Shown: piece after piece, positions 7,816-58,222 of the stretch
Layout: every line of letters begins with the position of its first letter
Position numbering within the stretch: the first letter of the stretch is position 1
Assembly: GCF_018326425.1 (NCBI RefSeq)
Contig: NZ_AP024601.1
Location: 2,344,001-2,408,000, forward strand
Length of the DNA: 64,000 bases
Source: Polycladomyces abyssicola
GTDB lineage: Bacteria > Bacillota > Bacilli > Thermoactinomycetales > JIR-001
Direction: 5' to 3'
Program-made: the position numbers and the translations under genes
Notes under the pieces: generated by a model
Told to the model about the DNA's origin: nothing
Seen by the model: the letters and a program-made list of their open reading frames with translations, nothing else
Database searches by the model: none

Positions 7816-8140
7816 CGCCTACCCCCTTCACAAAATGAATCCCCGAACGCTGCTGACTCAAGCTAATCTCTTTTGAAGACATCGATCCCCTCTTGTTGTT
7901 CTTTTATTTTAACAGACGCCGAAGGTCACTGTTGTATGCTACGAACAGAAAAACCCGAAGCGGACAAGTACCGCATCGGGTTCACGAGTATCGTTCGCAA
8001 ATAGTCTTCTTTCCACAGAACTGGAAAAGATCGAAGCATGCTTCGATCCCACAAAAGTCCAGAGACTCTCGTCTTAAGCTCCGTATCAACAACCAGAGTC
8101 ACTCGATGGGAAATACGACAGCTCCCCTAAATGACAGCCG
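7816..8140. other. Intergenic region with several hairpins, no gene seen
   Basis: The first 90 bases hold the promoter side of the activator gene. The rest is rich in inverted repeats: a terminator-like stem at 7952-7982, a perfect 20-bp palindrome at 8029-8048, and a GC-rich stem near 8148-8167 that reaches into the next gene's 3' end. No open frame with a ribosome binding site was found. It may be the remains of a mobile or repeat element. Confidence 0.5.
7946..7982 (-). terminator. Rho-independent terminator
   Basis: On the minus strand, AACCCGA and TCGGGTT arms with an inner GCGG/CCGC stem are followed by five T. It would end the transcript of the hypothetical gene at 8141-8686, though 160 nt of untranslated sequence lies between. 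Confidence 0.6.
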
Positions 8141-30785: not shown

Positions 30786-31073
30786 TAATAACAAAGCTCC
30801 TCATCCGTAAGGGACGAGGAGCTCGCGGTACCACCCTTATTGAATCCCGAAAGATTCCACTCTGTCGCACGGACCGATCGTCCGCACGATTCCCGATATC
30901 GGGGGAAAGCCGGTTTGACCTACTCCGTGGGGTTACTGATCACCCAACGTTTCAGCCAACAGCTCCGAGGGGTAATTCGGTCAATGGGCCGATACCGGTT
31001 CGCAGCCACCACCGGCTCTCTGCAATCGGGTCTCCACTGCCTACTTCGCCTCTTCAACGCTTTTGGGTATGAA
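30786..31073 (-). promoter_or_regulatory. T-box riboswitch, probable Tyr specifier, ahead of DAHP synthase
   Basis: The T-box sequence AAGGGTGGTACCGCG is at 30838-30824 (minus strand). A strong terminator follows (AGCTCCTCGTCC and GGATGAGGAGCT, then TTGTTATT). Stem I shows GAAGTAGGCAG, the AGAGAGCCGGTGG and GCGAACCGG loops, and then GAATTACCCC. Lined up with tyrS leaders (GAACUUACCUC), the specifier is UAC at 30974-30972, i.e. Tyr. Uncharged tRNA-Tyr would favour the antiterminator. Confidence 0.93.
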
Positions 31074-52696: not shown

Positions 52697-53173
52697 CTAC
52701 GCCAACCTGAAGAAATCGCCGGTCGCCGTCGCGATCAGTTTGCCGTTTTCATCCGTCACTTTCGCTTCCAACACGATGATGGTCCGGCCACTTTTCACCA
52801 CACGGGTTTGTGCAGTCAGCCAACCATCCTGAGCCGGTGCCAGGAAGTGCACATTTAAATCCAGTGTCACAGCGCGGCGCTCATAACCGAACGCTTGAAA
52901 CACGGTGTAACCCATGGCCGTGTCGATAAAAGTGGTCGTGATTCCCCCGTGCAGCATTTTGTAGCGATTTTTCAGCTCTTCGGTTACCAACATCCGGTGA
53001 ACATAAACGCCCTCTTTTTCATCGTAGCCATCCGACCGAAAATTCATCAGCTCTTCAATATATGCCAACGGGCTGACCCGCGAACGCTTGAGTGCCTGCA
53101 CCATTTTGTAGATCGTCTGGATTTCCTGTTCGTTCAGATCTTGCAACTCCTGCAGCAATCCTTCTCTTGTCAT
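52697..53173 (-). CDS. PaaI family thioesterase (second copy)
   Basis: A 158-aa hot-dog protein, starting at ATG 53173 with AGAGGGA 8-9 nt upstream. The N-terminal 45 residues are helical (LLQELQDLNEQEIQTIYKMV). The hot-dog core starts near residue 60: RYKMLHGGITTTFIDTAMGY with the HGG and Asp, then RAVTLDLNVHFLAPAQDGWL and GKLIATATGDFFRL. It differs clearly from the thioesterase at 47995 (about 30 percent similar by eye in the core). It precedes the Nudix gene. Confidence 0.87.
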   Translation of the reverse strand: MTREGLLQELQDLNEQEIQTIYKMVQALKRSRVSPLAYIEELMNFRSDGYDEKEGVYVHRMLVTEELKNRYKMLHGGITTTFIDTAMGYTVFQAFGYERRAVTLDLNVHFLAPAQDGWLTAQTRVVKSGRTIIVLEAKVTDENGKLIATATGDFFRLA

Positions 53174-53275
53174 GATCAAATCCCTCTTTTGACGAAATAT
53201 ACGGATGAAATATGTAACCCTTCACACTGAGCGATACTTTCGCCCATACGCATAGTATAGCAAAAAACGGTGACT

Positions 53276-53528
53276 AGCGAATGAAAAAACCCAGGCGTTC
53301 GACCTGGGGAGACTGCTGACACCATAATCTACCCATCGTGATCTCGAGTGAACTGTTTTCACTGCTCCTATTTCGTAAACACTCAAAGGTGGCTCGTGGG
53401 AAAACGGCTACCCCTCTTATGGAGGATTTGGTCCTATCAAGCGACTCTAACCGTCACTACAGAGCAGAGACGGGTAATCGGAACCCGCAAACTTGATCCA
53501 CAACCTGCCCAGGTTTTTAACCTGGGTT
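53276..53528 (-). other. Structured non-coding region bounded by two near-identical hairpins
   Basis: CCCAGG-N7-CCTGGG occurs at 53290-53308 and again at 53508-53526. On the minus strand the first is followed by six T, so it is a good terminator. The 200 nt between are full of short stems, such as CGGGTAATCGGAACCCG (53471-53487), and contain no gene. It may be a small RNA gene, an attenuator leader of the thioesterase operon, or the non-coding end of a lost IS. Confidence 0.5.
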
Positions 53529-54188
53529 TCCTCCCCTTTGCTCAGCCACCATCAGCCACACATATCGGTTCAACTGCTTCAGACAAACGGTAAGGCCCGC
53601 CTGACGGAAAGCACTCTCCAAACGTTCCACTACCGGATAATATTCTCGTTTCAAATCCAGTGCAAGCTCATGAAATCCACGTTCCTCGGCTTCCTGTTGC
53701 ATGGCCCGTTTCGTGGCTTCATCCCGAAAAACGGTATCGGCAAACACAATTCTTCCGCCTGGCCGGAGCCGACGCGCGAAATCCCGAAGCGCCCTGTCTT
53801 TTTCGTCATCCGTCAGATGGTGAAACGCATACGTACTGACAATCCCGTCCACGGGCGGAAGACCGTCCGGAACGTGCAGAAAATGCCCTTCATAGAGCTC
53901 CAGATCCGGCAGTTTGCTTTTCGCCTTTTCCCGCATGGCAGCAGACGGTTCAATCCCGATCACACGGTATCCCGCCGCCAGGAGCAAACGTGACAAATTG
54001 CCGGTACCGACACCGAATTCCATCACGACACTCCCTTTGGGAAGGGAGAGCGATTCTACCACTGTCTTCAAAATATCGGCATATCCCTCAAACACCTCGA
54101 TATATTCCGGATGACCGCCGGATACAGCATGATCGTAATCCTCGGCCCATTGATCGAACAAATCGTTAAAACGCGGTTCGTTTGTCAT
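53517..54188 (-). CDS. Class I SAM-dependent methyltransferase (YrrT-like)
   Basis: A 223-aa methyltransferase. Motif I is VVMEFGVGTGNLSRLLLAAG (about 54-73), motif II VIGIEPSAAMREKAK, and the post-motif region GIVSTYAFHHLTDDEKDRAL and LRPGGRIVFADTVF. The N-terminus FNDLFDQWAEDYDHAVSGG resembles YrrT of Bacillus, which works in the methionine-to-cysteine route beside mtn, mccA and mccB. None of these are next to it here. ATG 54188 has GAGGAGG upstream. The last four codons lie in the hairpin at 53508-53526. Confidence 0.87.
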   Translation of the reverse strand: MTNEPRFNDLFDQWAEDYDHAVSGGHPEYIEVFEGYADILKTVVESLSLPKGSVVMEFGVGTGNLSRLLLAAGYRVIGIEPSAAMREKAKSKLPDLELYEGHFLHVPDGLPPVDGIVSTYAFHHLTDDEKDRALRDFARRLRPGGRIVFADTVFRDEATKRAMQQEAEERGFHELALDLKREYYPVVERLESAFRQAGLTVCLKQLNRYVWLMVAEQRGGNPG

Positions 54189-58054: not shown

Positions 58055-58222
58055 GGTCTGTTGAAACAAACGTTCCTGTATAGCTGAAAGCAGAATGAGG
58101 CCATTCAAAAAAGAAAGGTGGCCTTTTCCTCACAAGGCAACCCCTAAGCAGAACGAAACAAACAGAGGAAGTGGAAAAAGGCTCACCTGAATTGGACTCG
58201 CAAAGATACGACACAGCCCTGC

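What the first reader, a model, noticed from the sequence alone, without database searches (positions are those of the whole stretch)
53276..53528. Possible small RNA or attenuator between methyltransferase and thioesterase genes
Two near-identical hairpins (CCCAGG-N7-CCTGGG) bound about 200 nt of structured, gene-free sequence. On the minus strand one is a good terminator. The region reads like an independent RNA of about 220 nt, a leader that stops transcription 110 nt before the thioesterase, or the non-coding part of an IS that has lost its gene. I could not place it in a known RNA class.
Basis: partly seen in the sequence, partly recalled or inferred. Interest (0 to 1): 0.5.

Follow-up and report, generated by a model that had tools for sequence, protein, structure and literature searches.

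The report
Mini-transposon lodged inside a transcription terminator
The two matching hairpins are two copies of one transcription stop signal, duplicated when a 199-base, gene-less mobile element jumped into it; the element is one of dozens in this genome and has ends like those of a known family of jumping genes, so it is well-explained mobile DNA and not a new RNA class.

Summary
In detail: two near-identical CCCAGG/CCTGGG hairpins bracket about 200 bases, and one is a good minus-strand terminator. The explanation is mobile DNA. The 199 bp between them (53309-53507) are one copy of a short dispersed element (MITE). A model of seven copies gives 74, 72 and 110 matches in the three held genomes of this genus; 3 of 39 other genomes of the order give one weak match each. 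Its two ends match ends of IS1182-family insertion sequences in a sister species at 16/16 and 15/16 bases, though no single IS matches both that well. Copies sit at terminator hairpins, and the whole stem-loop is repeated on both sides in 15 of 47 copies with both ends intact (0.03 expected). One copy with an exact 19-bp duplication is a single hairpin without element in both sister species. Seven IS1182-family elements in four genomes carry exact hairpin duplications. Rfam finds nothing; covariation is weak and depends on the alignment. The element probably now lies in the methyltransferase 3' UTR, before its surviving terminator (inferred). New MITE family, known kind; interest low to moderate.

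The parts
53309..53507 (-). MITE copy (199 bp, read on the minus strand, left end at 53507)
   Evidence: Model R1 match 1-208/208, 165.7 bits (this copy is one of the seven used to build the model); 13 places in own genome by blastn, itself included; 74 by the model
53492..53507 (-). left terminal inverted repeat (CAGGTTGTGGATCAAG; family consensus CAGGTTGTTGACAAAG)
   Evidence: flank table; consensus and comparison with IS ends
53309..53326 (-). right terminal inverted repeat (TATGGTGTCAGCAGTCTC; family consensus CACTTTGTCAGCAGTCTC)
   Evidence: the 15-base core has 2 mismatches here
53508..53526 (-). upstream copy of the duplicated target hairpin (CCCAGGTTAAAAACCTGGG), without a T-run; holds the methyltransferase stop codon in its loop
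   Evidence: direct repeat of 53290-53308 at 15/19 positions
53290..53308 (-). downstream copy of the duplicated target hairpin (CCCAGGTCGAACGCCTGGG), with T-run at 53284-53289 (minus strand): rho-independent terminator by sequence
   Evidence: 7 pairs, 5 G-C, tail TTTTTTCATT; single-copy counterpart in sister genome G001
53517..54188 (-). SAM-dependent methyltransferase gene whose terminator was the target (read from the ATG at 54188, inside a 266-aa open frame; true start not tested)
   Evidence: Pfam Methyltransf_25 and related hits; orthologous site in G001 and G002
52697..53179 (-). thioesterase-superfamily gene downstream (neighbour, not part of the element)
   Evidence: Pfam 4HBT
58104..58188 (+). 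probable decayed internal fragment of the same MITE family
   Evidence: R1 match 90-171/208, 22 bits, E 0.0003; a hairpin like the family core is visible

Best explanation
[quoted passage not shown] The transposase took the stem-loop of the methyltransferase gene's rho-independent terminator as target (inferred: by shape, as a cruciform). It joined the element at the outer feet of the stem, so repair duplicated the whole hairpin on both sides. The upstream copy lacks the T-run; the downstream copy kept it. The gene should thus still be terminated, but about 218 nt later, with the element in its 3' UTR. Shown by sequence: the repeat family, ends shared with IS1182-family elements, the hairpin duplications and sites without the element. 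Inferred: the strand-transfer geometry, which IS supplied the transposase, and the transcript.
For: (1) Dispersed family: 13 blastn places in own genome; model R1 gives 74, 72 and 110 matches at E up to 0.01 in the three held genomes of the genus; under stricter filters 3 of the 39 other genomes of the order have one weak match each. (2) Ends: the right-end pattern occurs 29 times in own genome with up to 2 mismatches, against 3 for the reversed pattern. (3) Target: among copies with the end intact, a hairpin (score 7 or more) abuts the right end in 25 of 66 (2, 0, 0 at offsets 12, 24, 36) and the left end in 28 of 65 (3, 1, 1). (4) Duplication: direct repeat across the element (score 7 or more) in 15 of 47 copies with both ends intact, 0.03 expected from swapped flanks. 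(5) Sites without element: the G000:929820 copy, with an exact 19-bp hairpin on both sides, is a single hairpin in G001 and G002; the window copy is absent from G001, which has one CCCAGG..CCTGGG hairpin with T-run, and present in G002. (6) Partners: G002 holds IS1182-family elements; one 507-aa transposase frame scores 482.5 bits against a cut-off of 270. One end of L142, L143 (G002) and L256 (G027) matches the MITE right end 16/16, and one end of L144 (G002) the left end 15/16. Seven distinct IS copies in four genomes are bracketed by exact hairpin repeats of 19-27 bp. (7) Where only one flanking hairpin is seen, it mostly has its tract outside: T-run in 15 of 19 right, A-run in 14 of 18 left; background 9 and 13 of 98.
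Against: The window's two hairpins differ at 4 of 19 positions, so the duplication is imperfect. Neither site without element is base-perfect: in G001 99 bases before the window hairpin, and at the 929820 site 16 (G002) and 20 (G001) bases after the hairpin, have no counterpart in G000. No single IS matches both MITE ends well: L142 16/16 and 12/16, L144 15/16 and 13/16; the IS with the intact transposase (L251) reaches only 12/16 and 13/16, while L142, L143 and L256 have the transposase in two frames and L144 is interrupted. Own genome G000 holds only partial or interrupted IS1182 transposase matches. 32 of the 47 copies with both ends intact show no duplication at score 7; a few have only short non-hairpin repeats, for example G001:C13:70285. 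Some of the 15 look orthologous by their flanks (G000:439426 and G001:C21:10956), so independent events are fewer. Among the other transposase loci, L258, L262, L264 and L270, which have full flanks but score below the family cut-off, showed no such repeat.
Confidence: 0.94

Rival explanations
1. An independently made small RNA of about 220 nt with a conserved fold, ending at the 53290 terminator.
For: Terminator at the 3' end; minus-strand fold slightly better than shuffles (z -1.9). On the model-fitted alignment of 81 matches the pairs covary: 135 double-changed cells against 49 in shuffles and 64-90 when slid. On the structure-blind alignment the 66 double-changed cells still exceed all 200 shuffles (mean 45, maximum 61), mainly from the first inner hairpin (37 against mean 20, maximum 30).
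Against: On that structure-blind alignment the 66 do not exceed the slid pairings (73-87). Only 1 of 50 pairs had a double change in the seven-copy alignment. No Rfam match. The only promoter-like site in 53180-53700 is on the plus strand and at chance level. Copies carry transposon-like target duplications.
Confidence: 0.05
2. A leader or attenuator that controls the thioesterase by conditional termination.
For: A terminator-like hairpin ends 111 nt before the thioesterase frame.
Against: In G001 the same hairpin and T-run stand alone behind the methyltransferase gene. The two hairpins are a direct repeat; no antiterminator was looked for beyond the folds.
Confidence: 0.03
3. Remnant of an IS110-type (bridge RNA) or IS200/IS605-type element.
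Against: Terminal inverted repeats plus a target duplication mark a DDE element (established knowledge), and the ends match IS1182-family elements. IS110 and IS605 transposases were not searched for.
Confidence: 0.01

Closest known systems
IS1182-family insertion sequences (IS1272 / TnSha1, ISCbo5)
   Same: Target choice: IS1272 and TnSha1 go into stem-loops including terminators (PMC4923244, PMC5678879, passages); all ISCbo5 sites but one are hairpins at gene ends (PMC3098183, passages).
   Different: IS1272 and TnSha1 delete or replace the hairpin and leave no duplication; here the whole hairpin is duplicated, which PMC5678879 drew as a hypothetical branch (its Fig 13, pathway b). The ISCbo5 passage does not say whether the hairpin is duplicated. 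The element here has no transposase gene.
MITEs assigned to the IS1182-family element ISMac2 (Methanosarcina acetivorans, 160 and 169 bp)
   Same: Short, multi-copy (14 and 7 copies), non-autonomous, IS1182-type partner (Table 4 of PMC3852290, passages).
   Different: Listed there with direct repeats of 4 and 0 bp; 'terminator' and 'hairpin' do not occur in that paper's main text.
Small pneumococcal repeats (BOX, RUP, SPRITE)
   Same: Short intergenic repeats; SPRITE is terminator-like (review PMC10969869, passages).
   Different: There the terminator-like sequence belongs to the repeat; here the terminator is the host's and is duplicated by the insertion.

Membership tests
MITE | short, multi-copy, no transposase gene | tested here: met
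   199 bp, too short for a transposase; 74 model matches in own genome; only chance-like frames of 60 aa or more cross it, the 81-aa one without Pfam match
MITE | terminal inverted repeats | tested here: met
   consensus ends CAGGTTGTTGACAAAG and, reverse complement of the right end, GAGACTGCTGACAAAG
MITE | target site duplication and sites without the element | tested here: met
   15 of 47 copies against 0.03 expected; single hairpin in two sister species, with 16-20 bases unaligned beside it
MITE | ends shared with an autonomous element | tested here: met
   16/16 to one end of L142, L143 and L256, 15/16 to one end of L144, but never both ends of one IS; the intact-transposase IS L251 reaches 12/16 and 13/16
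IS1182 family (as the mobilising partner) | DDE transposase over the family cut-off | tested here: met
   NF033551, 482.5 bits, cut-off 270, for L152:1640-3163 in G002; only partial or interrupted matches in own genome
IS1182 family (as the mobilising partner) | transposition of this MITE by that transposase | not testable with these tools
   needs a transposition assay
IS1272-type inverted-repeat-replacing insertion | target hairpin deleted, no duplication | tested here: not met
   hairpin on both sides of the window copy and of other copies; seven IS copies with exact hairpin repeats
Rfam RNA family | covariance-model match | tested here: not met
   only a T-box elsewhere in the window at gathering scores; nothing in 53150-53650 up to E = 10
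Structured non-coding RNA | compensatory changes beyond controls | tested here: inconclusive
   above both controls on the fitted alignment; on a structure-blind one above the shuffles but not above the slid controls
Rho-independent terminator (53308-53290, -) | G+C-rich stem followed by T-run | tested here: met
   termination itself not testable here

The most novel reading that the evidence does not exclude
By duplicating the whole terminator hairpin, this element family usually leaves an intact terminator on the outer side and places itself just upstream of it in the transcript. Dozens of unrelated genes would then share the same foldable 3' UTR, which could act as a genome-wide 3'-end regulon or a source of 3'-derived small RNAs. 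The IS1182 transposase would be one that recognises DNA shape and inserts without harming its host's transcription units.
Probability: 0.12. Interest if true: 0.55.

Novelty: new member of a known kind. Interest (0 to 1): 0.27.

Why it matters
It takes a candidate new RNA class off the list and puts a mechanism with testable predictions in its place. It also gives natural examples of whole-hairpin duplication by IS1182-family elements, an outcome that the IS1272 paper drew as a possible branch but did not see for IS1272. An insertion that copies the terminator it enters should do little harm, which may explain (inference) how the family reached 72 to 110 model matches per genome.

Tried and rejected
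Rfam at gathering and relaxed thresholds gave nothing in the region. Searching plasmid records with a near-consensus copy gave no match. A pattern search for the element's right end around the two transposase fragments of own genome gave only poor matches (3-4 mismatches in 15); an end-like stretch beside a hairpin is visible by eye in L052. A site without element for the G002 IS copy L154 was sought in G000 and G001: no match in G000, one 92-base match at 71% in G001, not usable. A G-T over A-C excess (260 against 178 cells) appeared on the fitted alignment, but that alignment favours G-T, so it is not used as evidence. That the family is confined to the genus rests on one genome per held species (41 genomes by blastn; 42 by the model); the three weak matches in G007, G011 and G019 were not examined beyond the repeat scan.

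Papers: PMC5678879, PMC4923244, PMC10969869, PMC3281130, PMC3852290 and PMC3098183 were seen as found passages only. Searches were seen as listings; two searches found no papers. Nothing that I saw in these reports whole-hairpin duplication by an IS1182-family element, but most listed papers were not opened and the library holds only openly licensed papers. I recall (no call) that ISfinder lists long direct repeats for some members of this family, so the outcome may already be on record there.

Full report
Observation. Both hairpins exist at the stated place. On the minus strand the order is: methyltransferase reading frame (its TAA stop lies in the loop of the first hairpin), hairpin 53526-53508, 199 bp, hairpin 53308-53290 with a T-run, then the thioesterase gene. 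The second hairpin is the only terminator-like site in 53180-53700. Single-strand folds are only slightly better than shuffles (z -1.9 and -1.4). Rfam gives nothing there up to E = 10.

It is a repeat family. The window's genome, one 3.2 Mb contig, holds 13 blastn places for this stretch, the window's own included; the 12 others are 69-91% identical over the matched part. Aligning those 12 with the window copy showed common ends and unrelated flanks. The right-end pattern occurs 29 times with up to two mismatches, against 3 for the reversed control pattern. A covariance model built from seven full copies, the window copy among them, finds 74, 72 and 110 matches at E up to 0.01 in the three held genomes of the genus. 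A run with stricter filters over 42 genomes of the order finds one weak match (E 7e-6 to 2e-4) in each of 3 of the 39 others. Named relatives of the neighbouring methyltransferase put the genome near Thermoactinomyces (82% and 76% protein identity); the genome itself is unnamed.

It goes to terminators and copies them. From the rows printed (not all 256 matches are printed) I took 98 that span the whole model: all 34 printed for own genome, and for the two sister species those down to E about 3e-13, leaving out partial matches and one match near a contig end. Their flanks are listed. Among copies with the relevant end intact, a hairpin (score 7 or more) abuts the right end in 25 of 66, against 2, 0 and 0 at three outward offsets, and the left end in 28 of 65, against 3, 1 and 1. 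Of the 47 copies with both ends intact, 15 have a direct repeat (score 7 or more) across the element; swapping flanks between copies gives 0.03; 32 have none at that score. Most of the best cases are whole stem-loops, for example ACCGCACCTGGTGTGCGGT exactly on both sides of G000:929820; one, G001:C3:25577, is a repeat that is not an evident hairpin. The window copy matches at 15 of 19. Some look orthologous to each other, so independent events are fewer.

Sites without the element. Both sister species have the G000:929820 site with one hairpin and no element; 16 (G002) and 20 (G001) bases beside the hairpin have no counterpart in G000. For the window copy, G002 has the element with two hairpins, while G001 has one hairpin with its T-run and no element. 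In G001 99 bases before that hairpin, about 75 of them after the stop codon, do not align. Neither site is therefore base-perfect.

The mover. G002 has several IS1182-family elements; one 507-aa transposase frame is far above the family cut-off. One end of L142, L143 (G002) and L256 (G027) matches the MITE right end at 16/16, and one end of L144 (G002) the left end at 15/16, but no single IS matches both that well, and the IS with the intact transposase reaches 12/16 and 13/16. I scanned 38 loci for direct repeats across the element: 35 transposase loci, some of them the same IS or cut by contig ends, and three loci of weak model matches (origins). Seven distinct IS copies are bracketed by exact direct repeats of 19-27 bp next to the IS ends: four in G002 and one each in G005, G027 and G035. 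All read as hairpins; for L250 and L252 this was judged by eye. Loci of more distant transposases with full flanks (L258, L262, L264, L270) showed none. Own genome retains only partial or interrupted transposase matches.

How it compares with print. IS1272 and TnSha1, of the same family, enter stem-loops and terminators but delete or replace them, without duplication (PMC4923244 and PMC5678879, passages). [quoted passage not shown] the elements here look like that branch. ISCbo5, another family member, sits in hairpins at gene ends (PMC3098183, passages). MITEs with an IS1182-family partner have been listed before (PMC3852290, passages). So the kind is known; this family, its copy number and the whole-hairpin duplication are what is added, as far as the searches show.

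Consequence. Over all 98 copies, at a hairpin score of 6 or more, 36 have a right and 35 a left hairpin, 17 both. Where only one is seen, the tract lies outside it in 15 of 19 (right) and 14 of 18 (left) cases, against 9 and 13 of 98 at background positions. The insertion therefore tends to leave a terminator with its tract on the outer side, with the element upstream of it in the transcript. That the element is transcribed as 3' UTR is inferred, not shown.

RNA function. On the alignment fitted to the model, covariation exceeds both controls. On a structure-blind alignment of the same 81 matches, 66 double-changed cells exceed the shuffles (mean 45, maximum 61), mainly in the first inner hairpin, but not the slid pairings (73-87). 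I count this as inconclusive and do not claim a selected RNA fold.

Changes after checking. The distance of displaced termination, the identity range, the lack of any one IS matching both ends, the unaligned bases at both sites without element, and the structure-blind shuffles were corrected or added; confidence was lowered from 0.95 to 0.94 and the small-RNA rival raised from 0.04 to 0.05 for that reason.

Noticed in passing
window 30807-31066 (-): T-box leader, 120.4 bits, the only Rfam match in the window at gathering scores.
   Followed up: no
L154:1828-3848 and L153:2268-4288 (G002): Two IS1182-family copies carry a GNAT acetyltransferase gene (144 aa) between the IS ends, upstream of a transposase split into two reading frames in both copies.
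   Followed up: partly
L152:1677-4489 (G002): The hairpin duplication and IS ends enclose most of the 507-aa transposase frame (its stop lies just outside, at 1640) and a 317-aa pyridoxal-phosphate-dependent enzyme (Pfam PALP, E 3.8e-83): a possible passenger gene.
   Followed up: partly
L031, L035, L043, L044, L045, L049 (own genome): Very short end-to-end elements (two inverted ends almost back to back) at several sites; L031 also shares DNA with the decayed transposase region of L052, by eye.
   Followed up: no
window 8067-8110 (+): Weak partial match to the element model (18.6 bits), perhaps another decayed fragment.
   Followed up: no
L058:1561-1659 (-) (G001): 99 bases before the methyltransferase terminator in G001 do not align with G000 (blastn); about 75 of them follow the stop codon.
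   Followed up: no
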